This document shows positions 27,907-42,695 of a stretch of 64,000 nucleotides of DNA, piece after piece. Position 1 is the stretch's first letter. Each line of letters opens with the position of its first letter. Under the pieces are notes generated by a model. It was not told the DNA's origin, searched no databases, and saw nothing but the letters and a program-made list of their open reading frames with translations. The stretch spans positions 1-64,000 of the forward strand of contig SDRQ01000001.1 of the NCBI GenBank assembly GCA_007845355.1. Direction: 5' to 3'. The stretch comes from TM7 phylum sp. oral taxon 352. Lineage in GTDB: Bacteria > Patescibacteriota > Saccharimonadia > Saccharimonadales > Saccharimonadaceae. Made by a program: the position numbers and the translations under genes.

Positions 27907-27907
27907 G

Positions 27908-28669
27908 TTAATCCCGAATTGCCTTTCCTGTTAAATCAATAAACACGTCCTCTAAGTTGGCTTGCTCGACAACTTGTTCCTTCTTAAAACCGCGCGCTAA
28001 TAATTGCTGGATGAGATTATGTGGCGTATCAATTGTGATAATCTTACCGCTATCCATAATTGCCAGACGATCACACAATAATTCCGCCTCGTCCATATAA
28101 TGCGTCGTCAAAAGAATCGTAATTCCCTCGTTGCGAATTTCCTTAATCAAATCCCACAAATTTCGGCGCGCCTGTGGATCAAGCCCTGTGGTCGGCTCGT
28201 CCAAAAACAACACTTTTGGATTATTTACCAATGTCGAAGCAATCGCAAAACGCTGTTTTTGACCACCAGAAAGCTGCTCGACGTAATTCTTAGCCTTTTC
28301 CGTCAATTGAACCTTAGCAAGCAGCGCCTCAGTATCAACTGTCCGACCATATAAACTACCAAACATTTTCAATTGTTCACGCAAAGTCAGTTTGTCATAA
28401 AAAGCCGTCGACTGAAGTTGAATACCAATTATATTCTTAATATCCTTAGGTTTCTTAGCGACATCTATGCCGTCAATTGTAGCCACGCCGCCGTCAATTG
28501 GTCTGAGCACTTCCAGCATTTCCAACGTTGTTGTTTTGCCCGCGCCGTTAGGACCAAGAATCCCAAATATCTCGCCCTTTTTAACTTCAAACGACACGCC
28601 GTCGACCACGTTATTTCCATCATAAGTTTTAACGAGTTTATCGACTTTTACAATTGGCTCAAGTTCCAC
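27908..28669 (-). CDS. ABC-2 exporter ATPase
   Basis: 253 aa, DrrA/CcmA-type. Walker A GPNGAGKTT, Q-loop QLQST, signature LSGGQKQR, Walker B LFLDEPTTGLD and switch TTHYMDEAE are complete. GTG start with GAGGA about 10 nt upstream. It pairs with the downstream permease to form a two-gene exporter of unknown substrate. Confidence 0.92.
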   Translation of the reverse strand: MELEPIVKVDKLVKTYDGNNVVDGVSFEVKKGEIFGILGPNGAGKTTTLEMLEVLRPIDGGVATIDGIDVAKKPKDIKNIIGIQLQSTAFYDKLTLREQLKMFGSLYGRTVDTEALLAKVQLTEKAKNYVEQLSGGQKQRFAIASTLVNNPKVLFLDEPTTGLDPQARRNLWDLIKEIRNEGITILLTTHYMDEAELLCDRLAIMDSGKIITIDTPHNLIQQLLARGFKKEQVVEQANLEDVFIDLTGKAIRD

Positions 28670-28751
28670 TCCGCAAATTCCTCTCTGTTGTAATTTTGAT
28701 CAAGCTAGTCTCTACTTATTATCAATAATAACAAAACCAAAATACTAGTGC

Positions 28752-28770
28752 TATACTTATAGTATGTGCA
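28752..28770 (+). promoter_or_regulatory. -10 box overlapping a palindrome at the start codon
   Basis: TGCTATACT ends 6 nt before the ATG at 28764. The palindrome ATACT-TAT-AGTAT covers the -10 and the start codon. Nearly the same sequence occurs at the polysaccharide locus promoter (56147-56163), suggesting a shared operator. Confidence 0.5.
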
Positions 28771-30215
28771 TTCAGAGAAAAATAGCAAAACCAAAATCGA
28801 AAAAACTATTTATTATCATACCGTTTTTGATTTTGCTATTTTCGGCAGGACTATTTGGGATATATTTCCTCAATCAATCACACTCACGACAAACGACTGC
28901 GCCATCTGACGAAAAGTATTATTTTGCCGATTCGAAATATTCTGGCATTCGCTCAAAATTTGTCACCAGAGATAACAAACGGGAAAAAGTTTCAATTGAA
29001 TATCCGATCACGGAAAATGAAAAAATTAATCGCTTAATTAGCGAGTCGATTGATAAAATTGATCGCGATTTTCAAAATACGGTTTTACTGGCGACAGTTT
29101 TTGATAAGCCAATGACTGAAACAATTAGCTATCAAGTCACGCACAACTCTTCAGAAGCGCTGTCAATTGTCGTCAATATTAAGCAGGATATGAATGGCGC
29201 ACATCCAGCATCAATGACGCAATTTTGGACTTTCGACAAAAAATCTGGCGAAGTTGTCGGCTTAGCTGATTTTATAGAACAGTCCGATGAAGCCGCCGAA
29301 GCAATCATATCCGCTGCCAAAGATAATATTTCTCAGACCATCAAACAACGCCAGCAGCCAGAAATTGACCTGAATGAAATCATAAATAAAGAAGCTTTGT
29401 CTAATTTCATCATCACTAATAACGGCAATTCATTGGCTTGGCCACTCGGTCAGGCGTCGCTACTGCCATCATCATACGGAGAATTGACAATTACCGTGCC
29501 AATTTCCTCCGTCTCTAAATATCTACAAAACCCAACGGCGAGAAAATTCGCCAACATTCCCAAGCCACCCGAGCCAAAGCCAGAACCAGCACCAGCACCC
29601 GCTGCGCCAACACCTGCACCAACCACTGGCAATAAAGTAATTGCCTTGACGTTTGATGATGGACCAGGTCCATACACCGCGCACCTACTGGACATCTTGG
29701 ATCAGTATGGCGCGAAAGCGACATTTTTCTTGATTGGTAGCAAAGTTTCTGGGCAAGCTAGCGTCGTACGTAGTATACAGGCGCGTGGTCATCAACTGGG
29801 TAATCATTCTTGGTCGCATCCAGAGTTAAATAAGGTTTCAGCAGAGCAACTCGCTAGTGAAATTGACCAGACGAATAACGCCATAAAACAAGCCGTCGGC
29901 ACCAAACCTAACATCATACGTCCACCATACGGTGCGTTTAATCGAGCAGTTTTGGAGCAATTCCGTCAACGCGGAATGTCGGCAGTTGTTTGGTCTGTCG
30001 ATACACGCGACTGGGCTGATCGTAATAGTGAAATCGTCTGCTCAAGGGCCGTCGCCGGCGCTCGCCCTGGAGCCGTCATCTTGATGCACGACATACACCA
30101 AACTTCCGTCAATGCCGTGCCGTGTATCCTCAGCTCACTCAAACAGCAGGGTTATTCATTTGTAACGGTACAAAATTTAATCGGCGATATGACACCGGGC
30201 ACCGTTTATCCGTAA
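28764..30215 (+). CDS. Anchored polysaccharide/peptidoglycan deacetylase (PdaC-like)
   Basis: 483 aa. Membrane anchor (residues 14-33), a DUF4163/DUF3298-like domain (about 50-255), a Pro/Ala/Glu-rich linker (268-292), then a NodB deacetylase domain. All five NodB motifs are present: TFDDGPG, HSWSHP, RPPYG, DTRDW and LMHDIH. This matches PdaC-type enzymes, which deacetylate peptidoglycan or chitin-like polymers outside the cell and confer lysozyme resistance. Target may be its own wall or that of the host bacterium. Predicted leaderless. Confidence 0.92.
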   Translation: MCIQRKIAKPKSKKLFIIIPFLILLFSAGLFGIYFLNQSHSRQTTAPSDEKYYFADSKYSGIRSKFVTRDNKREKVSIEYPITENEKINRLISESIDKIDRDFQNTVLLATVFDKPMTETISYQVTHNSSEALSIVVNIKQDMNGAHPASMTQFWTFDKKSGEVVGLADFIEQSDEAAEAIISAAKDNISQTIKQRQQPEIDLNEIINKEALSNFIITNNGNSLAWPLGQASLLPSSYGELTITVPISSVSKYLQNPTARKFANIPKPPEPKPEPAPAPAAPTPAPTTGNKVIALTFDDGPGPYTAHLLDILDQYGAKATFFLIGSKVSGQASVVRSIQARGHQLGNHSWSHPELNKVSAEQLASEIDQTNNAIKQAVGTKPNIIRPPYGAFNRAVLEQFRQRGMSAVVWSVDTRDWADRNSEIVCSRAVAGARPGAVILMHDIHQTSVNAVPCILSSLKQQGYSFVTVQNLIGDMTPGTVYP

Positions 30216-30217
30216 AC

Positions 30218-30439
30218 TTAATCAATCTCAAATATCTTATATTTTGAAGCTGCACCACGCACTAATTTAACTTTGGACGGCGCAACCTTAAAATGTTTTG
30301 CCAATAATTTAATAGTCGCCGCGTTGGCTCGACCTTCAATTGCTGGAGCTTTGACATAAACCGTCAATGTGTCGTCATCATTTTTCACAACTTCCTCACG
30401 ATGGCGAGAGTTTGGTTTAATGTGTACGGAGATTTTCAT
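30218..30439 (-). CDS. DUF167/YggU family protein
   Basis: 73 aa. ISVHIKPNSR at the N terminus, VYVKAPAIEGRANAATIKLLAKHF and VKLVRGAASKYKIFEI match the small DUF167 (YggU) family, of unknown function. It lies at the edge of the defence island, 19 nt after the 200-aa unknown gene, and is convergent to the deacetylase gene with a 2-nt gap. Confidence 0.85.
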   Translation of the reverse strand: MKISVHIKPNSRHREEVVKNDDDTLTVYVKAPAIEGRANAATIKLLAKHFKVAPSKVKLVRGAASKYKIFEID

Positions 30440-30458
30440 GATTCAATAATCATTACCC

Positions 30459-31061
30459 TTAAAACGACATCGCCTCCAACTCCCGTGGCAAAATCTCCTG
30501 CACTTCTACCGAACCTGCTACCAAATGATAGCCGTGCAACTTTGACGGCAAATCACGCTCGACCGAACGCCAATTAACTGGCCGATTTTCATCGAAATAA
30601 TCGAGTAGTTCTGCATTCAAAAAATGCTCGCGCGGCAGATCCACCGAACCATCCTGATTGACAACCAGCGCTATCGACAGGCCAGCCGTCACACCACCTT
30701 CATTTTTAGCATACGCCGCCGTTACCAGATGAACCAGCGGCTCAAATTTCAGCACCGACTGGTCGCTCGCCTCCACCTGCGCCTGGCCGCGACGCGCTAA
30801 CTGCTGATTGATTTTTGTTGTCAATTCGTCAACACTTGGCTTACCGTCGCCCGCTCGGCAATAGTCGCAACCATCTGCCGCCTCGACATATTCCAGCAGC
30901 AAATCCATGTCGACGTCAGTGTCTTTAACGCCATGCTGCGACAATTGCTCCACCATTTCATGTAACGCGCCCAGCAAACTATAATCATTAGCATTTCTGG
31001 CGGCATCACCGATGCGGATGATGGCGCGAGCGATAGTGATGGTTTTATTTGGCGTGTTCAT
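30459..31061 (-). CDS. Unknown 200-aa protein, last gene of the defence run
   Basis: Soluble, acidic. An N-terminal helical part is followed by DGCDYCRAGDG (CxxC, near residue 78) and an alpha/beta C-terminal half ending in LPRELEAM. No family recognised. I chose the ATG at 31061 because AGGGGA lies 4-5 nt upstream. A longer frame overlaps the res gene but lacks such a site. It follows Res by 41 nt and probably belongs to its operon. Confidence 0.65.
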   Translation of the reverse strand: MNTPNKTITIARAIIRIGDAARNANDYSLLGALHEMVEQLSQHGVKDTDVDMDLLLEYVEAADGCDYCRAGDGKPSVDELTTKINQQLARRGQAQVEASDQSVLKFEPLVHLVTAAYAKNEGGVTAGLSIALVVNQDGSVDLPREHFLNAELLDYFDENRPVNWRSVERDLPSKLHGYHLVAGSVEVQEILPRELEAMSF

Positions 31062-31102
31062 ACATTCCCCTGAAGCTATTTCACAACTCTTTATCAATAT
31101 AT

Positions 31103-34015
31103 TTACACCCGCCAATCATCAGGCGTTGATTTAGCATAATCACGCATACCAATTGTCTCAAAATGTTTCTTAGCACAAGCAATTTTATGTAGTTCATCTT
31201 CGCGTTCGCCACCGTTCTTCGTCTCACGCACCATATATACTTTTTCTACGCCATTAACTTCTTTGACAATTGCCCAGTCTGGATTGTAGTCACCGACTGG
31301 CGTTGGTATCGTAAACTTCGACGGCAGCTTGAGGAATAGTTTGACATCTTCGCGACTATCCAAGTATTCGGCAAACTTTTGTTCAGTCGCCGAGTCTAGT
31401 GCTAATCTATCTGTCACTGTTTTTTGTTGATTCTTAACTTGATACAGTCGATCAATAAATCGTTCGGCTTCTTCATCGCTATCTTTTTGAAAATTGCGAA
31501 GTTCATAACTACGCTCACCCATCTTTTCATACTCAACGCCATCTACCACAACCTGCGCCAGTACCGACTTAATTGCACTCTTCACCATCTGCACATAGTC
31601 ATACGGGTTTTTCAAGAATTCATGCAGCCGACCACTACCGATCAAAATGTCAACAATTGTTCGTCGAGTGAGACCAGTGCTATCCTGTAATTCAGAGATG
31701 ATATTCGGCAGTTCAAACGTTCCCGCCAAATCATGCGTTGCTTCGCCGACCATACCATCATTATGAACACCGCCGCGCTTCAAAAGTACCCTATGTCTTT
31801 GCACTTCAATTCTTAATGGCTTAAGCTCAGGTTTAGCTTTAATAGCATTGATGGCCGCCATAATAATCTGGCCGTTATCAAATACCACACGATACGTCGT
31901 TTTATGTGAAATTCGCTTCCACAATTCCTCGAGTAGCGGACTATACAAAACTTCTTTATTGGGACGAATCTTCTCTTTTTTACGCGCATCCTTAACAAAT
32001 TTATCAATTTTACAGCCCTCAATAATATCAACCACCTCGGCATGATATTTTTGCAGATCGCCAGGTAGATCAAGCGTAAAGCCAATATTATTCGGCGCGA
32101 AATTCGCCAGCACCCGACCTTCATCATCAATCATGCTGCGACGCCGCAAACATTCCCAAATCTCATTTGATTTCTGATGTCCCAATGTACTGTTTGGATC
32201 GTCATGTAGTGGTATCCGCGCAAATTCACTACGCCGCACAAAACCAATCTTAACACCAGCTTTCTTATATTCCTTTTGTAAATTATTAGCAAAATCACGA
32301 TACGATTCATTAGCAACCACCATCAACTGATTGATCTGTTCGTCAAACACTCGCGTACCGTCCTGACGCACTGGCAAGCGCAAACCCCGCCCAATCGTCT
32401 GTCGGCGATCATTTTCACTGCCGCTCTCGCGCATCATACAAATTTGAAACACATTCGGGTTATCCCAACCCTCTTTCAGCGCTGAGTGGCTAAAAATAAA
32501 CCGTACTGGATTTGCCTGGTCGAGCAGTTTTTCTTTACCTTTCATGATTAGGTCATAAGCCGACTCATCCTGTGCATTACCCTTACCCTCTTTGCTATCG
32601 ACAAAGCTTGTTTTACCGCCCTTACGCATCTCAGCAAAGTATGCTTTTCGAACCTCACTTGGATCTTCAGGCATAATATCTTCGTAAAAACGGCTCTTTT
32701 TTCGCTCTTCCTGGTACAATTCATCAAACCAACGTGCAAATTTTCCGTCAACCATATTACCGTCATCATCATACTCTAAATAGCTCGCCACCTTATCAAC
32801 AAAAAATAGACTCAGCACTTTAATCCCTTGATCGCGCAGTAAATATTCTCGCTTAATATGCTCGGCGATGGTCACACGAATCATCTCACGCATAACCTGG
32901 TCTTCATTGCCGCCCCAATTTTCACCAAGCATCAGGACCCCTTGCGATCCAACTTCCACACTCGCTGGAACCGTCGAAATTTCATTGATGGTATAGCCTT
33001 CATAAATACTATTACCGGTGCGAATATCCAGTTTGTCATGATGATTAACCCATAATGATTTTCGACCAACATTGCCATTTTTATCGCGAACCAACACTTC
33101 GACATAAGCTTGGAGCTTCGGCGTATTACGCACATCGATGAGTTTGATATACGGCTTAGCATCACTACCCTCTTGCTGAGCATTCGCCACCACGATGCTT
33201 TTCACCAACTTCTCCCGGTGAGCATCAACTGGATCGAGCCGATACATCATGTTGTATTCGTTAGTATGCGTGGCGCTATAACGCAATGTGCACATCGGGT
33301 TCAAATCCTTAATCGCACTCGTCGACAGTTCACTCTCCATATTTTGCGGCTCGTCCATAATGACAATCGGATTGACAGCAGCCAGATATTCAATTGGGGC
33401 AATACCATTTAGCTTGTCGCGTTCTTGATGAATTACTCGTGTATTCTTATTACCGCGAATTGCATCAATTGTCATGACCATAAACTGCGTCATAGTGCTG
33501 GTAGCATAACTCTGTACCACCTCTGGATTTTTACCATCATACACCGACGCTTCATACGGGCTATACCCCATCTCACGCGTAAAGTGTTCACGCATGCCAT
33601 CAAGGCTACTTTTCACGCCCTCTTTGATGGCAATGCTCGGCACGATGATAATAAATTTCGAAAAACCATACAATTTCGCCATTTCCAGCGCTGTACGCAA
33701 GTATACATACGTCTTGCCAGTGCCAGTTTCCATCTCCACGGAAAAGTTCATGCCGTCCAATTCTTTAACCGGAGCGATGCCGTTGTCGTTTTGAATTGAC
33801 CGAACATTCTCCAAAATAGCATCGTCATCAAGCAGCAAATTATTGCCAATTGCACCAATTTCGTCGAACAGCCTGACCTGGGAACCGCGCACCGATCGCG
33901 ACTGCAAAACCGCATCGAACGCATCAGCACCGTCAGGCTGCCCTTCAAAAACACCAGTAATAGCGCTGATAGCCTGTAGCTGGAACGGCTGGCTGGAATC
34001 GTATTTAATTTTCAT
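31103..34015 (-). CDS. res: Type III restriction enzyme, Res subunit
   Basis: 970 aa. SF2 helicase core: METGTGKTYVYLRT (Walker A), IVIMDEPQNME (motif II, DEPQ form), then QTIGRGLRLPV (motif VI). The C-terminal PD-(D/E)XK nuclease is visible as NPDWAIV followed by MVRETKN. Together with Mod it forms a complex that translocates and cleaves DNA lacking methylation at paired sites. All catalytic blocks look intact, so the system is likely active. It overlaps the KilA-N gene by 11 nt. Confidence 0.95.
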   Translation of the reverse strand: MKIKYDSSQPFQLQAISAITGVFEGQPDGADAFDAVLQSRSVRGSQVRLFDEIGAIGNNLLLDDDAILENVRSIQNDNGIAPVKELDGMNFSVEMETGTGKTYVYLRTALEMAKLYGFSKFIIIVPSIAIKEGVKSSLDGMREHFTREMGYSPYEASVYDGKNPEVVQSYATSTMTQFMVMTIDAIRGNKNTRVIHQERDKLNGIAPIEYLAAVNPIVIMDEPQNMESELSTSAIKDLNPMCTLRYSATHTNEYNMMYRLDPVDAHREKLVKSIVVANAQQEGSDAKPYIKLIDVRNTPKLQAYVEVLVRDKNGNVGRKSLWVNHHDKLDIRTGNSIYEGYTINEISTVPASVEVGSQGVLMLGENWGGNEDQVMREMIRVTIAEHIKREYLLRDQGIKVLSLFFVDKVASYLEYDDDGNMVDGKFARWFDELYQEERKKSRFYEDIMPEDPSEVRKAYFAEMRKGGKTSFVDSKEGKGNAQDESAYDLIMKGKEKLLDQANPVRFIFSHSALKEGWDNPNVFQICMMRESGSENDRRQTIGRGLRLPVRQDGTRVFDEQINQLMVVANESYRDFANNLQKEYKKAGVKIGFVRRSEFARIPLHDDPNSTLGHQKSNEIWECLRRRSMIDDEGRVLANFAPNNIGFTLDLPGDLQKYHAEVVDIIEGCKIDKFVKDARKKEKIRPNKEVLYSPLLEELWKRISHKTTYRVVFDNGQIIMAAINAIKAKPELKPLRIEVQRHRVLLKRGGVHNDGMVGEATHDLAGTFELPNIISELQDSTGLTRRTIVDILIGSGRLHEFLKNPYDYVQMVKSAIKSVLAQVVVDGVEYEKMGERSYELRNFQKDSDEEAERFIDRLYQVKNQQKTVTDRLALDSATEQKFAEYLDSREDVKLFLKLPSKFTIPTPVGDYNPDWAIVKEVNGVEKVYMVRETKNGGEREDELHKIACAKKHFETIGMRDYAKSTPDDWRV

Positions 34016-34877
34016 GATTCAGCCTCTTTATCTTATCGTTTATGAACATATTATGCTGTTCTTCCGCTTTTAAGATTGAATCGTAGTGCCTTCTTGCATG
34101 TTCAGCTAATTTTATAATTCGTTCCTGCTGTGGCATTTTTTGATCTATCAAAAAAGCATTAAGACTCTGTAGGTTTGCTATTAATACAAGTTGTTGTTCT
34201 GTCGCATAATCTCGCTGATTACGACCAGCCTTAGCTAAAGCCGGATTTTGTCTACGCCATTCTCTAGCAGTCTGGCCAAAAGCCAACCGATTAAGCATAT
34301 CTGCTTCGTCCGTATACACGTACTTATCTATAACACTATGACTCAAGGATGGGATTAAACTATCCCTGATAGAATCAGTGTGTAATTTATAATTTACACT
34401 GGCAAGAATTCTTCTTGAATCCCAGTTAAGCTTCTTCTGTTCAATAGCCTTCAGTCTCTGATACTCAGTAATAATTAGTAATCGAAATTCTGGACTCAAC
34501 CAAGTACCAAATTCAAATGCGATATCACGATGTGCATAAGTACCGCCATATCTGCCAGCTCGTGCCACAATACCTTTCGCATTTACACGCTCAACCCAGT
34601 GTTTTGCGGACATTGTAAATCTGTTTAAGCCTGCGATATTTTTAATTTCCTCGAATTCGAGGAAATTAAAATCTGGATTATTATATCTCTCCCAAACACC
34701 TAAAAAATCTATAGTATTCTTGTTACGCAACCAATTATCTATGACTTTGTCTGCTCCGTAAGCCTTTGCCATATCAGTTAGACAGATATAATCTTCACCG
34801 TCAATTTTTGTAACTTTGACTCCTTGATTATTAATATCAAGTGAGTTGTTTTTAGTTGTCTTATATACTGGAGTCAT
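34005..34877 (-). CDS. KilA-N domain protein inside the type III RM operon
   Basis: 290 aa. The N-terminal KilA-N domain (residues 25-135) includes CLTDMAKAYGADKVIDNWLRNKN and the typical GGTYAHRDIAFEFGTWLSPEFR. The C-terminal half is helical and charged. KilA-N is a DNA-binding module first known in phage and large DNA virus proteins and also found beside bacterial methyltransferases. Here it is locked between mod (1-nt spacing) and res (11-nt overlap). It could be a specificity, regulatory or anti-phage accessory subunit. No phage structural genes are nearby. Confidence 0.88.
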   Translation of the reverse strand: MTPVYKTTKNNSLDINNQGVKVTKIDGEDYICLTDMAKAYGADKVIDNWLRNKNTIDFLGVWERYNNPDFNFLEFEEIKNIAGLNRFTMSAKHWVERVNAKGIVARAGRYGGTYAHRDIAFEFGTWLSPEFRLLIITEYQRLKAIEQKKLNWDSRRILASVNYKLHTDSIRDSLIPSLSHSVIDKYVYTDEADMLNRLAFGQTAREWRRQNPALAKAGRNQRDYATEQQLVLIANLQSLNAFLIDQKMPQQERIIKLAEHARRHYDSILKAEEQHNMFINDKIKRLNHEN

Positions 34878-34878
34878 C

Positions 34879-36819
34879 TTACACCGTCCACAATTCTACA
34901 TCATAGCTTTTACAAGTTTGGACCAGATTGGTTTTAAGCTGGTTGTCACCCTGGAAGGCGTCGTCGAGAATGACAAACTTACTCGGAGTCAGGTCGGTGA
35001 TAATAGCGCGCAATTGATCTAGCGTCGGTTTGGCGTGTTCGTTGAGATACAGCACTGGCTGACCTTCCGTCGAATCGCCCTCGGCGACGACTTGATATAC
35101 ATGCAGACCATCGACGTCGACGGTTTGAGTGCGCGTAGTCAGCGGCAAACCCATTTTCAAAAGCACTTCCACCAGCAGATCTTCCTCGCTAGCATTATCG
35201 TTACTGCTTTCGCGCATCAGATCAAGTCGTGCCTGCAATTCGGTCAAATCGCCCGTCGGCGCGCTTTGCCACTTGGTGAAATTGGTGTCAGCCAGTTTGT
35301 AAGTACGATATCCAACATCCAGCGGAGTCTCACGCTCAGCCAGCTTATCGGCAAAATCGGCTTTAATCTTTTCACCCGCCCGATTGATACGCTCGCGGGC
35401 AATATCGCTAATCTTTTTATAACCAGCCTTAAACGCCTCGCTCTTTTCGTCGGTCGGCTCAGGCAACTGCACCATGATGTGCTTACGGTTACCGCCATCT
35501 TCGGCGTTGAGTTGCATGACAGCATGAGCGGTGGTGGCAGAACCAGCGAAGAAGTCGAGAATCAACGAATCTCTTGATGAAGCTATTTTCGCCATAAATT
35601 CAATCAAAGTTACAGGCTTTGGGTAGTCAAAATATTTTTTACCATCCATAAGATTCTTCAAGCTTGTAGCAGCCCCTTGATTGTGCCCTACATCTTTATA
35701 TAACCACAAAGTCTCAGGAACCGAACCATCTTGCACTTCACTCAGAAAGCGCTTAATCCGTGGCACATTATCACCGTCTAGGCCAAACGATATCCTGTTA
35801 TCAGCCACTAACTTTTTATAATTTTCATACGATGTTCGCCAGCAACGACCTGGGGTTGGATTTATTGTCCTACCAGAGGGTAAAGTTATCGGATAATCAT
35901 ATGATGCGCTGTATGTTGCAACTGTAAAGTTATCACTTTGCCACGGACCGCGTGGATCATTATCAATATTCTTATAGCGTGCAAGCTGCTCTTTACTCCT
36001 TGGTAGCAAATTGCGCGAAAATCTTTCTATAGATCGTGCATAGATAAGAATATAGTCATGACTTGTAGAAAAGTACTTGGCGTCATTTTGAGGTGCATAT
36101 TTTTTCTGCCATACAATCTGAGAAACAAAATTTCCCTCACCAAAAATCTCATCACAAATCTTTTTCAAATTCGCTTGTTCGGCGTCGTCAATCGAAATAA
36201 ATATCACCCCATCATCGGTCAATAAATTACGCGCCAGCTTCAAACGCGGATACATCATATTCAGCCAGTTACTGTGATAACGGCCGGCGGTTTCGGTATT
36301 GGTACTGATCTTTTTGTTACCCTCGTCTACCTGCTGGCTAAACTCCAGGTAGTTTTGCAAACCTTCCTTGAAATTATCCGGATAGACAAAATCTTTACCG
36401 GTGTTATACGGCGGATCGATGTAAATCATCTTGATGCTGTTGTGATACTGCTTTTGCAATACTTTCAGCACCTCGAGGTTATCGCCCTCAATGAAAATGT
36501 TATTGGTCGTATCCCAATCTTTGCTCTCGTCCTTGGCGGGTCGGAGCGTCGCAGTTGTCGGGTCCTGGGCTGCCCGAAGCGCCTGCTTCTTGCCCGGCCA
36601 AAACAACCCGAACCGCTCATTCGGCTCGCCAGCATCCTCCGCCAGCAGCTCCTTCAACTTAACGACATCCACCTTACCATCCGCAATCGCCTCCGGAACT
36701 AACTCCTCCAGCTTTTTCGCTAGGTCGATGCGGAAGTTGGGAGAAGTGCTGATTAGTTGGTGGTTGTCTGTGTTTTGCTGTTCGTTATACTCATTTAATT
36801 CACTCATTTTCATCCTCAT
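34879..36819 (-). CDS. mod: Type III DNA-methyltransferase, Mod subunit
   Basis: 646 aa, beta-class N6-adenine methyltransferase. The catalytic DPPYNTGKDF (about residue 137) precedes the SAM motif LDFFAGSATTAHAVMQLN (about 420). The target recognition region lies between them and is AT-rich at DNA level compared with the flanking conserved parts, as is common for exchanged recognition domains. It protects host DNA and supplies site specificity for Res. The start overlaps the upstream membrane protein stop as ATGA. No repeat tract typical of phase-variable mod genes is visible. Confidence 0.95.
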   Translation of the reverse strand: MRMKMSELNEYNEQQNTDNHQLISTSPNFRIDLAKKLEELVPEAIADGKVDVVKLKELLAEDAGEPNERFGLFWPGKKQALRAAQDPTTATLRPAKDESKDWDTTNNIFIEGDNLEVLKVLQKQYHNSIKMIYIDPPYNTGKDFVYPDNFKEGLQNYLEFSQQVDEGNKKISTNTETAGRYHSNWLNMMYPRLKLARNLLTDDGVIFISIDDAEQANLKKICDEIFGEGNFVSQIVWQKKYAPQNDAKYFSTSHDYILIYARSIERFSRNLLPRSKEQLARYKNIDNDPRGPWQSDNFTVATYSASYDYPITLPSGRTINPTPGRCWRTSYENYKKLVADNRISFGLDGDNVPRIKRFLSEVQDGSVPETLWLYKDVGHNQGAATSLKNLMDGKKYFDYPKPVTLIEFMAKIASSRDSLILDFFAGSATTAHAVMQLNAEDGGNRKHIMVQLPEPTDEKSEAFKAGYKKISDIARERINRAGEKIKADFADKLAERETPLDVGYRTYKLADTNFTKWQSAPTGDLTELQARLDLMRESSNDNASEEDLLVEVLLKMGLPLTTRTQTVDVDGLHVYQVVAEGDSTEGQPVLYLNEHAKPTLDQLRAIITDLTPSKFVILDDAFQGDNQLKTNLVQTCKSYDVELWTV

Positions 36820-37250
36820 TCAATTTTGAATTGTGCCAATAAGGCAACTAATTCTGTTATTACTATTATAACCCCAAAAATTGCTGATGCATTATACAAT
36901 GAGAGTATAAATAGCCCCATATTGCCTTCGCTGTAGATTTTTGAGGCTATATAACAGATGGTATTTAATATAAATATAGTCACCATCTGAGATACCAGTA
37001 CATTTCTCCATGGCTGCCGCAAAAAATAGTCAAACTTATCTTTATCCTTTTTCCTAGCAAACAACACTCCAAAAAGCGAGATGGCTGATGTCAACAAAAA
37101 GATAATGAGGATTTGATCTGGATACTCAAATTTAGAAATTAAGTTGTTCTTTATCCCACAATAAAGCAATAGAGAAATTCCCGCTACTACAAATAAAATA
37201 CTTGCAATTTGTATGATTACAGAGCTAAAACAGATCTTAATCAGCTTCAC
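36816..37250 (-). CDS. Unknown four-helix membrane protein of the defence run
   Basis: 144 aa with four predicted helices (about 9-31, 46-64, 85-105, 110-138). A charged cytoplasmic loop ARKKDKDKFDYFLRQPWRN lies between helices 2 and 3. No family recognised. It is tightly coupled: 14-nt overlap with the 301-aa gene and 4-nt overlap with mod. Small multi-helix proteins beside a soluble partner are common effectors of abortive defence systems, so a membrane-effector role is a reasonable guess. Confidence 0.7.
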   Translation of the reverse strand: MKLIKICFSSVIIQIASILFVVAGISLLLYCGIKNNLISKFEYPDQILIIFLLTSAISLFGVLFARKKDKDKFDYFLRQPWRNVLVSQMVTIFILNTICYIASKIYSEGNMGLFILSLYNASAIFGVIIVITELVALLAQFKIE

Positions 37251-38142
37251 TACTAACCGCCTTTGTCAGCAGCTCTCTGTTTGTTTGATAATTATGGTAC
37301 ATTTCTTCCTGAACACTTTCATGAGTACCTGGGTCGTTGTAATCTTTAGTCTGAATGCTTGATTCATACTTCTCCTGAAGTATATTAACTAGCTCTTCGC
37401 CAAATTTAGCCGACACTTTTTCGTACATACATCGTAATTCCTCAATGCTATCAGAACCCAATAAGTTAAATATGGATTGATTGCGCAAAATATCATCATC
37501 ACTTCGCGAGCGAGGTCGCTTCTTAACAGTTATTTCTATAACCGATTCATCAGAAACATATGATCTTAACTGAGTAAAGGCAGAAAACAGAGAGGATTTA
37601 TCTTGTGTAGTTGGTATTTTATCCCTACTAATTGATACTGTTGCGAGGCTCAGAGATTTGTCGGATAGCAATTGCTGTACATCCGGATATAGTATCAGTT
37701 TAGGCTTCAGATACACAATCGGATCATAACCCAGTTTAAACTGCATAAAATTCAAATAATTCATGATTGCGGAATATCTAGCACCATGATGGTTGTATAA
37801 AACGGAGAATATTTTTGTAGACGGAAAATACAGGAATAAAGTAACTTGCACGATTTTCTTTCCTTGGGGTAGTTCAAACTTCTCAAGCGACGAAGACTCC
37901 TTTTCTCCTGTAGTCATCGATCCATCTGTATACATCACAAGAGATCCGGCATAATAATCACCCACTTTTCGCCACGAATGCAGACGCATCGTGATATTGT
38001 CCTTTTTAGGCAATTCATAGTCTCTCTTCTCCACAGGTAGCTCTACGACCTCATTGAACATCTCCTCAATAGTGTGTTGAAGTTCTTCATGCTCCTTATC
38101 GTACGTATAACTAACGTAAATAATCTTTTTAGATTGACTCAT
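37237..38142 (-). CDS. Unknown 301-aa soluble protein of the defence run
   Basis: An N-terminal alpha/beta part starts MSQSKKIIYVSYTYDKEHEE. A central segment TLFLYFPSTKIFSVLYNHHGAR (residues 101-122) has a striking NHHG motif. The C-terminal half is helical, containing RRPRSRSDDD-like basic/acidic residues (about 209-218). No family recognised with confidence. ATG preceded by GGAGAA. It follows fic by 4 nt and overlaps the four-helix protein gene. The soluble plus membrane pairing resembles sensor/effector modules such as Kiwa in layout only; I see no sequence match to KwaA or KwaB. Confidence 0.7.
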   Translation of the reverse strand: MSQSKKIIYVSYTYDKEHEELQHTIEEMFNEVVELPVEKRDYELPKKDNITMRLHSWRKVGDYYAGSLVMYTDGSMTTGEKESSSLEKFELPQGKKIVQVTLFLYFPSTKIFSVLYNHHGARYSAIMNYLNFMQFKLGYDPIVYLKPKLILYPDVQQLLSDKSLSLATVSISRDKIPTTQDKSSLFSAFTQLRSYVSDESVIEITVKKRPRSRSDDDILRNQSIFNLLGSDSIEELRCMYEKVSAKFGEELVNILQEKYESSIQTKDYNDPGTHESVQEEMYHNYQTNRELLTKAVSSEAD

Positions 38143-38146
38143 TCCA

Positions 38147-39016
38147 TTATTCTCCTATCATCCACACTCCACCAACTCTAAACGCCGGTATGGTTTGTCG
38201 AGCAGCTTTATTGGCAGCTACATTTCCAGCGACGCCGTTTTGCTTCGCCCATTCGGACAGCTTGATAATTTTTGATGAAGATAGTAGTGTTATTCGTTTG
38301 TGAAGCGATTCTATAAGCAGTAGCGCAAATAGCTCAGTAAAACCATCGTATCGATTGGTCTTTGTGTATTCATCAAACAATGGATAGTAGTCTGTGTTTT
38401 TACTCTTACTTTGGATAATAATTGGCGGATAGCCAGCCAGCGCAAGCTGTTGATTGATCAATACCCGACCCATCCTGCCGTTTCCATCGGTAAATGGGTG
38501 TATAGCTTCAAACTCTGCGTGAAAATACGCAATTTTATCAAGAAAATAGTCAGTTTCATTTTGATAATAGCTATCAACCAGCTCAGATATCAGTCTCGTT
38601 ACAAATGCCGGATTGGCGCCCAAATTACTACCGACGCGCACCCATTCTTTACCTGATCGAAACCTACCGGCTATATCATCTCTGATGCCAGACATTAGTA
38701 GCGAATGAATGGACAATATTAGACCGGTTGATAGACGTTCGGTGGGGTTTTTAAGTAGTTCGGCAGTTATTTTAGCAAGATTTTTCACCTCATATATTTC
38801 TCTAATTTCGTGATCTTTGACGATTTTATTGTGAATAATAATAGCTTCAGTATCTTGCAAGGTTAGCGTAGAATTTTCGATAGCATTAGAGTTGTAAACC
38901 ATTTCCGACAGCTCGCTCATAGATATCTCATAAAGCGCGCTTTCTTTGCCTTTTGACAACTTATCGTATTGCTTATGCAATGATGCAATTTTGTCTTTTG
39001 TCGTTTGGTTAATCAT
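38147..39016 (-). CDS. Fic family protein (AMPylase-type), class II layout
   Basis: 289 aa. The Fic core HPFTDGNGRMGR (residues 173-184) is complete. An N-terminal inhibitory helix motif SNAIEN (residues 43-48; [ST]xxxE[GN]) identifies a self-inhibited class II Fic. A winged-helix-like C terminus (220-289) may bind DNA. Such enzymes transfer AMP or another nucleotide to Ser/Thr/Tyr of a target. Predicted leaderless (-10 at 39024-39029, 7 nt). As first gene of the coupled defence run it could modify or regulate a partner encoded downstream. Confidence 0.9.
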   Translation of the reverse strand: MINQTTKDKIASLHKQYDKLSKGKESALYEISMSELSEMVYNSNAIENSTLTLQDTEAIIIHNKIVKDHEIREIYEVKNLAKITAELLKNPTERLSTGLILSIHSLLMSGIRDDIAGRFRSGKEWVRVGSNLGANPAFVTRLISELVDSYYQNETDYFLDKIAYFHAEFEAIHPFTDGNGRMGRVLINQQLALAGYPPIIIQSKSKNTDYYPLFDEYTKTNRYDGFTELFALLLIESLHKRITLLSSSKIIKLSEWAKQNGVAGNVAANKAARQTIPAFRVGGVWMIGE

Positions 39017-39023
39017 ATGATTT

Positions 39024-39029
39024 ATTATA
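39024..39029 (-). promoter_or_regulatory. Extended -10 box of fic and the defence run
   Basis: TGCTATAAT, 7 nt before the fic ATG. It is the only clear promoter upstream of the seven-gene run. Confidence 0.6.
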
Positions 39030-39082
39030 GCATATTTATCGTGAAAATCACCAACTTTATGCCATTTTTCACGGTAAGTTGC

Positions 39083-41932
39083 TTATTGTATGGCAAATTC
39101 TATGGTAAATAACCTATCGGTAATTACCCCGCCCTCAGACGCTTGTTGCGCTAGAGCTATTTTATCGGATATTTGCTCGTCCATACTGTCTTCGAGGTCG
39201 TATTTCTCGCGGTTGAGAGTGCGTACTTTTTTGCGTAAAACTTGGACTTCGCTGGCAATTTTTAGACGAGAAGCGGCATCACCTGCCTGACGTTCTTGCT
39301 TTTGCAATTCTTGAATCTTAGCATTAAGCTTATCAGCCTTCATTTCGTATTCGACAATTTTGTCTTTATATTGACGCTCTAGCAGATCTTTTTTATCAAG
39401 GTAAGCGTCAGTGTTGCGACCCTTGACTTCCTCTTGGCGTTCAGCAATTTGCTGAGCCAGGTGATTTTGCAACACTTCTGTAGGGGCAACTGCTTTTTGG
39501 TTGCTATCAGCAGCGTATAGCTCGAGGATCTTGCGGCAAGTCTCCGTATCAAGCAACATACCGTCTTCTGTCTGCGCTGACGCCAAAATGTAACTTTCGC
39601 TCATATCCGAAGAGCCTATTTTCATCGGAAAGGTTACCTGCTCGACAACCATTGTGCCGCGGGCGCCGATCAGCTTTTTAACCTCAGAAGCGACTCGATC
39701 AGACTGGCTCATGTCAAAGATAAGTTCTGCTGGCGGCGTTGGCGCAGTCTTTGCTGTACGGCGCACATATTCTGCCAAATCGTCGGCATATTTGTATTGC
39801 CGAGCGTGCAGCAAGCGTTCAGTTTTATAGAAATATGTTCCGCATTCGATGTTTTTTTCCGGTGCAGTTTTTAGATCAAAAACGTGTTCGTTTGCAAACG
39901 ACGCGTTGCCGCGCAGTATATAGCGCGTCAGGTTCATAAACAATCGCTCAAAGCGCGTAAAGGCTTCTTCAGCTTGCTCGTCGTAGCGGCGGAAACGATC
40001 TTGCACGTGAGGATCAAGCCCCTCAAAAATCCGGGTACGCGCCGCTTGTTGCTCAGTATCAATTTCTATCTTAAATTCTTCTTGTAACTTTTCAAACCGT
40101 TGGCTAATCTCATCATCGGTGCGGCACGTGTTCAAAATATCGCTAATTTTCTTTTCAAAATCCAGTCCGCTTTCAATCGCGCCTAGTACATCATTGCTGG
40201 CGCCAAATGTACTTTTGAACAAACTAAATTTGTCAGTCAATAGTTCAAGAATTCGCTGCTCGGCGACATTGCCTTGATTGCTAAAATTCACCACAACAAC
40301 ATCGTATTTCTGCCCCATGCGATGGACTCGCCCAATTCGCTGTTCAACGCGCTGCGGATTCCATGGTAAGTCATAATTAATTAGCATGGAGCAAAATTGC
40401 AAGTTGATACCTTCGCTGGCCGCTTCGGTGGCGATCATGATCTGCATTTTGTCATCTTTGAATTTATCAATTAACGCCTTGCGGCGGTCCGCTGATTCTA
40501 TACCAGTAACGACATCGGAATTTTCATTATCCGCCAACCATTGGCGATAAATCTCGGTACTTTCCGGCGAGTTATTTTGTCCGTTGAATAACACTATTTT
40601 TCCATCATAGCCCTGCTTTTTAAGCGTTTTGGCGATATAGTTCTGCGTAAGGGTTGATTCGGTAAAAATAATTGCTTTGCGAGCAGCTTTTGATTCCAGT
40701 GCATTAAAGCCGACATTGATCGCCTCGACCAATTTTTCGGCTTTGACATTTTCTTTGATTGAATCAGCAAAGTCGGCGTATGATTTTAGTTCATCGATTT
40801 CAGCCTGAAACTCGGCGCGCTCTTTGGCCGATTTAATTATATAGTCATCGTAAGCGCCAGTCTCCTCAAATGCCTCAATTTCTTCATCGTTCAGATCGCC
40901 CAGCTCATCAATCAAGCCACCGCGGTTATCGCGAACCTTACCCGCAGCATACTCTTCCTCCATGCGCCGTACAATATTCCGGAGTGTACTGGCAACTGCG
41001 AACGTGGATGAACCGAGACGTTTGCGAAGAATCAGCGCTGACAAGTGGCGCTGCGAAGATGCAAATGCATACAGTTTATCGCGATGCAAATATTCGTCCA
41101 CCAGCTCATATAATTTTTGCTCATCGCCAGATGGTTCAAATTGCACCGTCTTGGCAATACGGTCAGTGTATTTAATATATTTCTTGACCTCCGATCGCAA
41201 AGTACGCTTGGCAATTTTGCTCATGCGCGAGCGAAGATCATCGAGTGCAAACGGATGATTTGACTTAATATAGCGTTGGCGAAAAACATCAAGCTTATAA
41301 AAATATTTAGGGTCAACAACCGACACTAAGCCGTATAATTCTTCAAGTCTATTCTGCAGAGGCGTGGCTGTGAGGAGCAGCGATTTTTCAGAACCTTTAG
41401 CGATATCAGAGACCGCACTAGCGATACCCTTTTGGTTATTATAAAAATTCCTTAACTTATGCGCCTCATCAAGAACTAGCAAATTCCAGCCGTTTGATAA
41501 CCTTGTCGAATGGCGATTGGCAAATTCGTAAGAACAAATATAGATGCCGTCTTTTTCGATGGTTCTTTTTGCCTTCATCCATTTGGAGTCGACAACGGTT
41601 GCTGGTAAATTGAACTTTTCTTGCAATTCCTGCGCCCATTGCTGGCGCAAGCTCGACGGCGCAATAATCAGGATCTTTCGTTTGCGTTCCGAGTAGTATT
41701 GCATGATAACGATACCTGCCTCAATAGTTTTGCCGAGGCCGACTTCATCCGCCAAGATAATACCGCGAGCCATTGGTGAGTTTAATGCAAACAGCGCCGC
41801 GTCAATTTGGTGCGGTGTCGGGATAATCTGAGCATCGAACATCAAGCCCGACAACTTAGCAACGTCATCGTTAGCATAGACGCGCTCAAGCTCATGGGCA
41901 ATATACTTTGCCTGATAATCAGAGTTAATCAT
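39083..41932 (-). CDS. SNF2/RapA-like helicase
   Basis: 949 aa. SNF2-type motor: LADEVGLGKTIEAG (motif I), LLVLDEAHKLRN (motif II), LLTATPLQN (III), ATEAASEGINLQFC (V) and QRIGRVHRMGQ (VI). After the motor, residues 620-949 hold an unknown domain and a long coiled coil (about 840-920). Resembles RapA and the SNF2 helicases of DISARM (DrmD) and other phage-defence clusters. No DISARM methylase or DrmA/B/C is present. It has its own leaderless promoter (41940-41945). Confidence 0.88.
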   Translation of the reverse strand: MINSDYQAKYIAHELERVYANDDVAKLSGLMFDAQIIPTPHQIDAALFALNSPMARGIILADEVGLGKTIEAGIVIMQYYSERKRKILIIAPSSLRQQWAQELQEKFNLPATVVDSKWMKAKRTIEKDGIYICSYEFANRHSTRLSNGWNLLVLDEAHKLRNFYNNQKGIASAVSDIAKGSEKSLLLTATPLQNRLEELYGLVSVVDPKYFYKLDVFRQRYIKSNHPFALDDLRSRMSKIAKRTLRSEVKKYIKYTDRIAKTVQFEPSGDEQKLYELVDEYLHRDKLYAFASSQRHLSALILRKRLGSSTFAVASTLRNIVRRMEEEYAAGKVRDNRGGLIDELGDLNDEEIEAFEETGAYDDYIIKSAKERAEFQAEIDELKSYADFADSIKENVKAEKLVEAINVGFNALESKAARKAIIFTESTLTQNYIAKTLKKQGYDGKIVLFNGQNNSPESTEIYRQWLADNENSDVVTGIESADRRKALIDKFKDDKMQIMIATEAASEGINLQFCSMLINYDLPWNPQRVEQRIGRVHRMGQKYDVVVVNFSNQGNVAEQRILELLTDKFSLFKSTFGASNDVLGAIESGLDFEKKISDILNTCRTDDEISQRFEKLQEEFKIEIDTEQQAARTRIFEGLDPHVQDRFRRYDEQAEEAFTRFERLFMNLTRYILRGNASFANEHVFDLKTAPEKNIECGTYFYKTERLLHARQYKYADDLAEYVRRTAKTAPTPPAELIFDMSQSDRVASEVKKLIGARGTMVVEQVTFPMKIGSSDMSESYILASAQTEDGMLLDTETCRKILELYAADSNQKAVAPTEVLQNHLAQQIAERQEEVKGRNTDAYLDKKDLLERQYKDKIVEYEMKADKLNAKIQELQKQERQAGDAASRLKIASEVQVLRKKVRTLNREKYDLEDSMDEQISDKIALAQQASEGGVITDRLFTIEFAIQ

Positions 41933-41939
41933 CAGAGTT

Positions 41940-41945
41940 ATTATA
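41940..41945 (-). promoter_or_regulatory. Extended -10 box of the SNF2 helicase gene
   Basis: TGTTATAAT, 7 nt before the ATG at 41932. Confidence 0.55.
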
Positions 41946-41953
41946 ACATTTTT

Positions 41954-42598
41954 CTAATCGATGGTTCGGAAGGATTGCTTGGTGATTAATAAATGAGACA
42001 TAAGAGGTATGCCAAGTAGCTCGCCGGCACGTTTGAGCCGATTGGTCGTTTCTATGTCGGCCTGGCTTGGTCTCATACTCCCGCTCGGATGATTATGTGC
42101 CACGATGATGCTGGCGGCACGATCGGCGATGGCGTCGGCGAAAACCTCGCGCGGGTGTACCAGGCTGGCCGTCAACGTACCGATAGTCACCACCCGCTTG
42201 GCAATCAAACGATTCGCACCATCCAGTGTCAGGCAAACAAAATATTCCTGCTTTTTGTCGCGAATGTCGACCAGTAGCTCGACCGCCTTTTCTGGACTGT
42301 CGATGATTGGCTGGTCGCTGTCCAGCAAGTACCGCCGCGCCAGTTCCAAACTCGCCAAAATCACCGAGATTTTCGCTTCACCCAAACCAACCACGCTACG
42401 CAGATCATCATACGAAACATCACCGCCCTTTTGACGCAAAATTTTCAGCACCTCGCGCGCAATCTTGCCGACATTGGCCCGAGCATTACCGCTGCCAATA
42501 ATCGCCATCAACAGCTCCAAGTCGCTCAGCCGCGCCGTACCGTAACGTGCCAATTTCTCGCGGGGACGGTCGATTTTCGGCTTGTCGAGCACTTTCAT
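41954..42598 (-). CDS. radC: RadC-family JAB/MPN protein
   Basis: 214 aa. An N-terminal UPF0758/helix-hairpin-helix-like segment (RDREKLARYG-type start, residues 8-70) is followed by a JAB/MPN metalloprotease-like domain with HNHPSGSMRPSQADIE (zinc ligands). Despite the name its role in repair is doubtful, and RadC genes are often linked to mobile or defence loci. Predicted leaderless (-10 at 42605-42610, 6 nt). It ends 9 nt before the helicase promoter. Confidence 0.92.
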   Translation of the reverse strand: MKVLDKPKIDRPREKLARYGTARLSDLELLMAIIGSGNARANVGKIAREVLKILRQKGGDVSYDDLRSVVGLGEAKISVILASLELARRYLLDSDQPIIDSPEKAVELLVDIRDKKQEYFVCLTLDGANRLIAKRVVTIGTLTASLVHPREVFADAIADRAASIIVAHNHPSGSMRPSQADIETTNRLKRAGELLGIPLMSHLLITKQSFRTID

Positions 42599-42604
42599 AG
42601 TCTT

Positions 42605-42610
42605 ATTATA
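42605..42610 (-). promoter_or_regulatory. Extended -10 box of radC
   Basis: TGATATAAT, 6 nt before the ATG at 42598. Confidence 0.6.
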
Positions 42611-42695
42611 TCAGGCTTTAACCATTCATCAGCTGCCAATCTTCGCGCTATCATTTCGTGCAGTCCTATTTATCGCTTACACCACGCAAAGATCA

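What the first reader, a model, noticed from the sequence alone, without database searches (positions are those of the whole stretch)
30459..39016. Seven-gene coupled run: Fic, two unknowns, type III Mod, KilA-N, Res, unknown
Seen: one clear promoter (39024-39029), then fic, a 301-aa unknown, a four-helix membrane unknown, mod, KilA-N, res and a 200-aa unknown. The first six are joined by gaps of 4 nt or less or by overlaps of 4-14 nt, and the last follows by 41 nt. Known: Mod/Res form type III restriction; Fic enzymes transfer nucleotides to proteins; KilA-N binds DNA. Inference: these are stoichiometrically coupled parts of one composite defence system, with restriction as the first layer and a Fic/membrane abortive layer as backup, rather than chance neighbours. 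I know of no described system with this gene set.
Basis: partly seen in the sequence, partly recalled or inferred. Interest (0 to 1): 0.82.

Follow-up and report, generated by a model that had tools for sequence, protein, structure and literature searches.

The report
RexAB-like cassette inside restriction operon
In a tiny Saccharibacteria-type bacterium, a DNA-cutting defence operon carries swappable extra cassettes, and the two 'unknown' genes look like a distant cousin of the RexA/RexB phage-exclusion pair of phage lambda rather than parts of one fixed seven-gene machine.

Summary
The gene order, coordinates and tight junctions are real; the reading as one seven-gene system is not supported. 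The restriction core is SNF2 helicase–Mod–Res (the helicase, 39083-41932, was left out). It fills a hotspot between radC and the 200-aa gene, which is a flank: two congeneric genomes carry type I R-M between the same flanks. A relative 98% identical over 7 kb keeps SNF2, fic, the Mod ends and Res, but lacks the 301/144-aa pair, the middle of Mod and KilA-N. Other loci hold Gabija, CBASS, Shedu or BRO-N genes around mod. The 301- and 144-aa genes are an autonomous pair: relatives in four other Saccharibacteria, an archaeal virus and phages directly precede a small membrane gene, and no homologue of this mod, res or fic was detected near the 18 relatives checked. The family is homologous to DUF6731; a confident model of a phage DUF6731 protein has the lambda RexA fold (Foldseek E 2e-7; Z 12.0, next 7.0). 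The 144-aa protein repeats RexB's length and helix layout. Best reading: a RexAB-like abortive module embedded beside Fic and KilA-N. The window's own protein was not modelled well, and its direct similarity to RexA is not significant.

The parts
41954..42598 (-). radC, conserved left flank of the hotspot
   Evidence: Pfam RadC E 1.8e-38; found in 7 of 10 genomes tested, beside type I R-M in G005 and G008
39083..41932 (-).
   Evidence: SNF2-rel_dom E 1.2e-34; best NCBIfam DISARM_DrmD_b 597 bits against a cut-off of 950; 70/52/44% homologues precede Mod-Res in L106/L107/L108; TATAAT
39024..39029 (-). TATAAT preceded by TG (extended -10), 7 nt before the fic ATG, so a probably leaderless message
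   Evidence: class over-represented in the window
38147..39016 (-). fic: Fic nucleotidyl transferase with intact HPFxxGNGRxxR and N-terminal SNAIEN inhibitory-type motif; between SNF2 and mod (slot 1)
   Evidence: Pfam Fic E 4.9e-19; PADLOC PDC-S04 4.8e-37, SoFic 4.4e-32; motifs
37237..38142 (-). RexA-like sensor candidate (301 aa), divergent DUF6731 superfamily; slot 1
   Evidence: Profile-profile to DUF6731 members prob 98.9, E 1.1e-17, 280 columns, 0 of 100 shuffles; RexA fold shown for a phage family member
36816..37250 (-). RexB-like 4-TM membrane effector candidate (144 aa), 14-nt overlap with the 301-aa gene
   Evidence: Hydropathy segments 11-29, 47-65, 84-102, 121-139; lambda RexB (144 aa) 8-26, 48-66, 84-102, 116-134
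34879..36819 (-). mod, type III DNA methyltransferase
   Evidence: PADLOC MTase_III E 4.6e-209; motifs
35557..36139 (-). middle of mod that does not align with G001: probable target-recognition domain (inferred)
   Evidence: GC 0.395 against 0.475 and 0.512 in the flanking mod parts
34005..34877 (-). KilA-N protein (PADLOC candidate PDC-S22); between mod and res (slot 2)
   Evidence: KilA-N E 1.7e-22; PDC-S22 E 2.4e-106; absent, with other genes in its place, in G001
31103..34015 (-). res, type III restriction subunit with C-terminal endonuclease
   Evidence: PADLOC REase_III E 2.5e-265; RE_endonuc E 2.6e-28
30459..31061 (-). 200-aa gene: conserved right flank of the hotspot, not part of the system
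   Evidence: homologues 36-39% beside type I R-M and yggU in G005 and G008

Best explanation
The locus is a defence hotspot between radC and the 200-aa/yggU genes. It is occupied by a SNF2-Mod-Res type III restriction operon with at least two cargo slots: SNF2/mod and mod/res. The 301-aa and 144-aa genes are one autonomous cargo cassette, a RexAB-like abortive module. The soluble RexA/RdgC-fold protein binds or surveys DNA and senses phage replication (inferred from lambda and P. putida Rex). It then activates the 4-helix membrane protein, which oligomerises into a channel or lesion, drops membrane potential and stops growth (inferred). Mod/Res cut unmodified incoming DNA first (inferred from family). 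Fic, held off by its SxxxEN helix (inferred), and KilA-N are further cargo. Translational overlaps would keep the RexA-like:RexB-like ratio fixed, which would matter because published Rex systems are stoichiometry-sensitive. Shown here: anatomy, cassette difference between near-identical genomes, pair conservation, homology to DUF6731, and RexA fold of a phage DUF6731 member. Inferred: RexA fold of the window's own protein, DNA sensing, membrane action and anti-phage effect.
For: Cassette: G001 aligns with the window at 98.1% (38154-45159), 88.6 and 91.8% (Mod ends) and 92.3% (27286-34015), but not over 36775-38153, 35557-36139 and 34016-34873. Related loci carry Gabija+Fic, Shedu, CBASS (NucC+cyclase) or PDC-S13/S05 genes around mod. 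GC of fic, the pair, KilA-N and the Mod middle is 0.33-0.40, against 0.44-0.51 for SNF2, Mod ends and Res; window mean 0.429. Pair: a small ORF with 3-4 hydropathy segments directly follows in 42 of 42 loci (14 clusters at 90% for the 38 clustered), and in G010. Homology: Saccharibacterial trio against DUF6731 members prob 98.9, E 1.1e-17. Fold: L015 model pLDDT 80.4; Foldseek top 8twq RexA E 2.0e-7, then RdgC; VIA Z 12.0, next 7.0. Six-row family against RexA score 40.2, best of 150 column shuffles 26.4. The Pseudomonas phage copy directly follows a Cro/CI-family regulator, as rexA follows cI in lambda. Three of six relatives hit PADLOC candidate PDC-M67A. P. putida RexAB precedent: PMC12894663 (abstract, passages, Discussion).
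Against: The window's own 301-aa model is poor (pLDDT 39.6, 3 sequences), so its RexA fold rests on homology to DUF6731. The three Saccharibacterial proteins alone do not match RexA (prob 0.6; 6 of 100 shuffles reach the score), and eight phage rows alone barely do (prob 1.9, score 23.0, best of 100 shuffles 22.7); larger mixed sets reach only prob 39-65. Whole-chain TM-scores to RexA are low, 0.35-0.39, with 15 A rmsd. No TM partner shows sequence similarity to RexB, and the Saccharibacterial and phage TM partners do not match each other. The window protein hits neither Pfam RexA/DUF6731 nor PADLOC RexA/PDC-M67. The fold search used one model. No functional data exist, and the trigger of lambda Rex is itself unresolved. 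Fic sits beside mod in two other loci, so some coupling of fic to the restriction operon remains possible.
Confidence: 0.62

Rival explanations
1. One reading: one stoichiometric seven-gene composite system in which Mod/Res, KilA-N, Fic and the unknown pair are obligate parts.
For: Gaps of 4 nt or less, or overlaps, between six genes; fic also lies beside mod in G334 (384 aa) and G306 (398 aa).
Against: Pair and KilA-N absent from G001 with core and fic kept; none of 14 other Res loci read, two of them cut short by contig ends, shows the pair or this KilA-N by tblastn at 1e-4; pair homologues stand without them in 18 of 18 loci checked; KilA-N homologues show no such Mod or Res in 13 of 13 fetched neighbourhoods of 4.8-18 kb.
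Confidence: 0.05
2. The pair is RexAB-like but with reversed roles (as in mycobacteriophage Butters): the soluble protein is the effector and the 4-TM protein restrains it.
For: PMC12894663 Discussion describes Butters gp30/gp31 with reversed roles; the pair is widely phage- and virus-borne.
Against: The other described systems (lambda, P. putida, CarolAnn, Sbash) use the membrane protein as effector (same source); nothing in the sequence decides.
Confidence: 0.2
3. The 301-aa/144-aa pair is neutral moron cargo or a phage-interference unit of another mechanism; the RexA fold is used only for DNA binding or regulation.
For: RexA/RdgC fold proteins bind DNA generally (PMC11077077 abstract); the TM partner has no detectable homology to RexB.
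Against: Two-gene co-conservation across bacteria, phages and an archaeal virus; placement in a restriction operon slot and PDC-M67A similarity of relatives.
Confidence: 0.13

Closest known systems
[quoted passage not shown]
   Same: Soluble about 280-300 aa protein followed by a 144-aa membrane protein with nearly identical predicted helix positions; RexA fold for a family member
   Different: Not next to a phage repressor but inside a chromosomal type III R-M operon; no Pfam RexA/RexB hit; direct similarity of the window protein to RexA not significant
RexABpp, P. putida PP_5643/PP_5644 (PMC12894663)
   Same: RexA recognised only by remote homology and fold; 4-TM partner without detected RexB homology (as reported there)
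   Different: Prophage genes there; no direct sequence comparison with PP_5643 could be made here
DUF6731 (PF20505), PHROG 7651/10865 and PADLOC candidate PDC-M67A
   Same: Window family is profile-homologous over the full length to DUF6731 members; window protein hits PHROG 10865 at 1e-6; L007, L009, L010 and L013 pass the DUF6731 cut-off; G216, GahPV1 and G112 proteins hit PDC-M67A
   Different: Window protein itself below detection in Pfam and PADLOC; no function is given for these families in the libraries
Genes embedded in R-M operons (TgvAB inside a V. cholerae type I R-M, PMC11411939; PADLOC PDC/HEC candidates)
   Same: Other defence genes inserted within a restriction operon (passages); fic = PDC-S04, KilA-N = PDC-S22
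   Different: Here a type III core with two slots and a RexAB-like pair in a Saccharibacterium

Membership tests
RexAB-type exclusion system | RexA/RdgC fold of the soluble protein: a family member | tested here: met
   Phage DUF6731 protein L015: Foldseek 8twq E 2.0e-7, RdgC next; VIA Z 12.0, 150 residues, 3.7 A
RexAB-type exclusion system | RexA/RdgC fold of the soluble protein: the window's own protein | tested here: inconclusive
   pLDDT 39.6; three-row profile against RexA not significant
RexAB-type exclusion system | Small 4-helix membrane protein encoded directly downstream | tested here: met
   144 aa, four hydropathy segments, 14-nt overlap
RexAB-type exclusion system | Membrane partner homologous to RexB | tested here: inconclusive
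   No profile signal; the published P. putida partner also had none
RexAB-type exclusion system | DNA binding, partner-dependent membrane damage, phage exclusion | not testable with these tools
   needs experiments
Pfam RexA (PF15969) / PADLOC RexA | Match to the family model | tested here: not met
   No hit for the window protein; lambda RexA itself hits at 1e-97 and 9e-110
DUF6731 (PF20505) | Curated cut-off reached | tested here: not met
   No hit for the window protein; relatives L007, L009, L010, L013 and G010 pass
DUF6731 (PF20505) | Full-length profile homology to members | tested here: met
   prob 98.9, E 1.1e-17 over 280 columns; 0 of 100 shuffles
PADLOC candidate PDC-M67 | Match to the PDC-M67A model | tested here: inconclusive
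   No hit for the window protein up to E 0.1; 3 of 6 relatives hit, best 4.6e-6; neither of the two DUF6731-associated TM proteins tested (window, 733R5) hit any PADLOC model
Type III restriction-modification | Mod with N6/N4 methylase motifs and Res with helicase and endonuclease | tested here: met
Fic with N-terminal inhibitory helix (class II, name recalled) | HPFx(D/E)GNGRxxR and (S/T)xxxE(G/N) upstream of it (motifs recalled) | tested here: met
   HPFTDGNGRMGR at 173, SNAIEN at 43
DISARM | DrmD above cut-off (drmA/B/C partners not searched further) | tested here: not met
   DrmD_b 597 bits, cut-off 950
Single composite seven-gene system | Unknown genes co-occur with mod/res and fic elsewhere | tested here: not met
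   0 of 14 other Res loci show the pair; 4 of 4 other Saccharibacterial pairs without detected mod/res/fic in 14-16 kb

The most novel reading that the evidence does not exclude
The RexA-like protein is wired to its host operon. It senses DNA ends or stalled complexes made by the type III Res/SNF2 machinery, or Fic modification gates it, so that failed restriction triggers RexB-like depolarisation. This would be a two-tier restriction-then-shutdown device assembled by cassette shuffling, and the DUF6731/PDC-M67 pairs of bacteria, phages and archaeal viruses would be one large unrecognised RexAB superfamily.
Probability: 0.13. Interest if true: 0.82.

Novelty: new variant of a known kind. Interest (0 to 1): 0.6.

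Why it matters
PMC12894663 (Discussion) counts only five described RexAB-like systems, all from phages or prophages. Linking DUF6731 and a PADLOC candidate family to the RexA fold would turn a handful of cases into a broad two-gene family reaching ultra-small bacteria and an archaeal virus, which makes the old question of how Rex is triggered testable by comparison. The G001/window pair is also a clean natural example of defence cassettes, and probably a target-recognition stretch, differing inside an otherwise near-identical restriction operon.

Tried and rejected
Considered and rejected: obligate seven-gene system; DISARM (below cut-off); the 200-aa gene as a system part; the 301-aa protein as a close relative of a plasmid or phage gene (no tblastn hit in plasmids or phages; none confirmed in IMG/VR; the G216 protein has none in plasmids). 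Kiwa was only a thought; PADLOC gave no hit for either protein.

Led nowhere: AlphaFold2 of the window's 301-aa protein; PDB sequence search with the family profiles; direct BLASTP between the window 144-aa protein and the G030 partner; profile comparisons of TM partners with RexB and with each other; phylum-wide profile search (1 of 379 genomes, the own one); the single genome-contig scan (one locus, the G030 contig); viral scans with the L003 and G216 proteins. The tool's alignments put the C-termini of the phage rows out of register with the window; an L-INS-i alignment brought them into register. The structure job for L015 (A11) used the tool's own alignment, with the phage rows well aligned and the window row poorly.

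Counts: the 42 loci include near-identical phages, three contigs counted twice, and two with a shortened partner; 38 were clustered (14 clusters), and L021, L025, L088, L089 were left out of the clustering. Loci that repeat contigs (L065, L066, L069-L073) were not put into. Of 15 non-own Res places 14 were fetched; one with a stop inside was left. Of 15 non-own KilA-N places 13 were fetched. The checks for neighbouring genes used tblastn at 1e-4 or 1e-5 with the window's proteins, which can miss distant homologues.

Full report
What is there. Fic, N6/N4 methylase, KilA-N and Res with its C-terminal endonuclease domain are confirmed by Pfam and PADLOC, and their motifs are intact. The 301-aa, 144-aa and 200-aa proteins match no Pfam or PADLOC family at E 0.1. 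The genome is a 636-kb, 85%-complete assembly. It shares a family with G030, whose 40,332-base contig is on record as Candidatus Saccharibacteria bacterium ME_46_23.

The restriction core and its slots. A search with Res found 15 of 392 genomes of the order (own included, E <= 1e-60). I read 14 other loci, two of them (L092, L111) cut short by contig ends. Three with the nearest complete set share SNF2 (70, 52, 44%), Mod (66, 62, 46%) and Res (76, 56, 42%). What stands between them varies. In G334 the SNF2/mod gap holds GajA, GajB and a SoFic-type Fic, and the mod/res gap a BRO-N protein (PDC-S13). In G380 the SNF2/mod gap holds an unknown 318-aa gene, the mod/res gap Shedu SduA, and a GmrSD gene follows res. 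In G107 both gaps are empty. More distant loci hold CBASS (NucC plus cyclase), PDC-S13, PDC-S05, Fic or OLD/AAA-type ATPases around mod, and two genes of G323 matched nothing. None of the 14 shows the 301-aa/144-aa pair or a KilA-N protein like this one by tblastn.

A natural experiment. Genome G001 is nearly identical in this region. Window 38154-45159 aligns at 98.1%, 36140-36774 and 34874-35556 (the two ends of mod) at 88.6 and 91.8%, and 27286-34015 at 92.3%. Missing from the alignment are 36775-38153 (the pair plus the first codons of mod), 35557-36139 (the middle of mod, probably the target-recognition domain) and 34016-34873 (KilA-N). Other genes stand in the two intergenic places in G001, several with frameshifts; the one between mod and res resembles, by eye, the BRO-N protein of G334. 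So three separate pieces differ while SNF2, fic and Res are shared; whether they changed in one event or several is not shown. The differing pieces and fic are also AT-richer than the core (GC 0.33-0.40 against 0.44-0.51, window mean 0.429).

The hotspot. In G005 and G008 radC and a 36-39% homologue of the 200-aa gene, with yggU next to it, enclose type I restriction genes (HsdM and HsdR, in G005 HsdS, in G008 RhuM) instead. In G004 radC is followed by a 68.5% identical fic and then a 1318-aa Eco57I/ResIII protein. The 200-aa gene is therefore a flank, not a seventh component.

The unknown pair. Homologues of the 301-aa protein were found in G030, G216 and G112 and, through the Pfam model of its relatives, in G010. 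They are rare: the 301-aa protein found 2 of 61 relatives, own included, profile A1 found 3 of 392 genomes of the order, own included, A3 found 1 of 379 of the phylum, the own one, and PF20505 found 1 of 21 and 1 of 392. Tblastn led on to the archaeal virus GahPV1, Pseudomonas phage AUS531phi and enterobacterial phages. A small ORF with 3-4 hydropathy segments directly follows in 42 of 42 loci scanned (14 clusters at 90% for 38 of them), and in G010 with a 17-nt overlap. No homologue of this Mod, Res, Fic, SNF2 or KilA-N was detected by tblastn (1e-4) in 18 of 18 loci checked, among them the four other Saccharibacteria with 14-16 kb each; phage loci were mostly 4-7 kb, and the 733R5 stretch has an annotated phage DNA methylase of its own. 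In AUS531phi the gene directly follows a Cro/CI-family regulator, the position rexA has after cI in lambda.

Family and fold. The Saccharibacterial trio (window, G216, G030) matches three DUF6731 members over 280 columns (prob 98.9, E 1.1e-17; 0 of 100 column-shuffled controls) and eight phage members over 265 columns (prob 96.8, E 2.4e-10; 0 of 100). Four relatives pass the DUF6731 cut-off; G216's protein does not. AlphaFold2 of phage member L015 with 15 sequences gave pLDDT 80.4, pTM 0.80. Among PDB chains Foldseek ranks lambda RexA first (8twq, E 2.0e-7, probability 1.00) and RdgC next (1.5e-4); PMC11077077 (abstract, passages and one Results section) reports RdgC as RexA's own structural relative. 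VIA-align gives Z 12.0 to 8twq_B over 150 residues at 3.7 A; the next entry has 7.0, RdgC 5.3 and 5.1. Whole-chain TM-scores are low (0.35-0.39) with 15 A rmsd, as might be if the two domains are set differently, so the match is by parts. By sequence, six family rows against four RexA rows score 40.2 (prob 65.3, E 6e-5, 187 columns), above all 150 shuffles (best 26.4); thirteen rows score 35.6 (prob 40.4), above all 150 (best 27.3); ten rows gave prob 39.0, E 3.2e-4 without a shuffle control. Eight phage rows alone give 23.0 (best of 100 shuffles 22.7), and the trio alone does not match RexA (6 of 100 shuffles reach its score). The window protein alone could not be modelled (pLDDT 39.6). The window's membrane protein and RexB are both 144 aa with closely matching predicted helices, but no profile signal links them.

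Independent hints of defence. Three of six relatives tested (G216, GahPV1, G112) weakly hit PADLOC candidate PDC-M67A (best 4.6e-6); the window protein does not. That PDC means phage-defence candidate, from the Payne embedding study, is recalled. Passages of PMC11411939 describe defence genes embedded in a restriction operon and cite that study. In E. coli the 733R5 pair occurs in 11 of 5426 genomes, annotated in the 10 listed as DUF6731 family protein and hypothetical protein. PMC12894663 (abstract, passages, Discussion) reports a P. putida RexAB whose RexA was found by HHpred and DALI and whose 4-TM partner showed no RexB homology, as here.

Mechanism proposed. Restriction acts first. The RexA-like protein, a DNA-surveying fold, senses phage replication and triggers the membrane partner, which halts growth; fic and KilA-N are separate cargo. 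The overlaps would keep the pair's ratio fixed; PMC12894663 reports that lambda Rex is sensitive to stoichiometry and suggests the same for P. putida Rex. Sensing and membrane action are inferred.

Novelty. No paper in the library holds 'DUF6731', 'RexAB' with 'Patescibacteria', or 'KilA-N', 'Fic', 'restriction-modification' and 'defense' together. Six papers hold 'RexAB', 'restriction-modification' and 'defense island'; only that listing was seen. Of 16 papers with one of four embedding terms, none of the 12 listed holds 'PDC-M67' (listing only). I rate it a new variant of a known kind: a divergent RexAB-like pair as a cassette in a type III restriction operon.

Noticed in passing
window starts 3316, 6395, 7367, 12889, 23062, 39016, 41932, 42598, 49287, 62230 (minus strand): TATAAT 5-9 nt before an ATG occurs 15 times in the window against 5.35 expected (0 of 100 shuffles reach 15); 10 of the 15 end at the listed start of an ORF of 120 aa or more: a likely class of leaderless promoters in this Saccharibacterium; radC, SNF2 and fic each have one.
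   Followed up: partly
window 35557-36139: Middle of mod does not align with the near-identical relative G001 while both ends do: a probable difference in the methylase target-recognition domain.
   Followed up: partly
L134 (G001:C1:598000-617500): The restriction core and its cargo in G001 hold many frameshifts, from either assembly error or real decay of the operon.
   Followed up: no
L109 (G108:C13:114000-130000): A type III restriction locus carries an apparent CBASS pair (NucC nuclease and cyclase) between a helicase and mod, and a PDC-S13 gene between mod and res.
   Followed up: partly
L009 7219-8683 (GahPV1 gp18/gp19): A pleolipovirus of the archaeon Geoglobus ahangari carries a DUF6731 protein followed with overlap by a membrane protein: a possible archaeal-virus RexAB-like pair.
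   Followed up: partly
window 39041-39072, minus strand: Inverted repeat GTGAAAA / TTTTCAC with an 18-nt spacer just upstream of the fic promoter, a possible operator (seen by eye).
   Followed up: no
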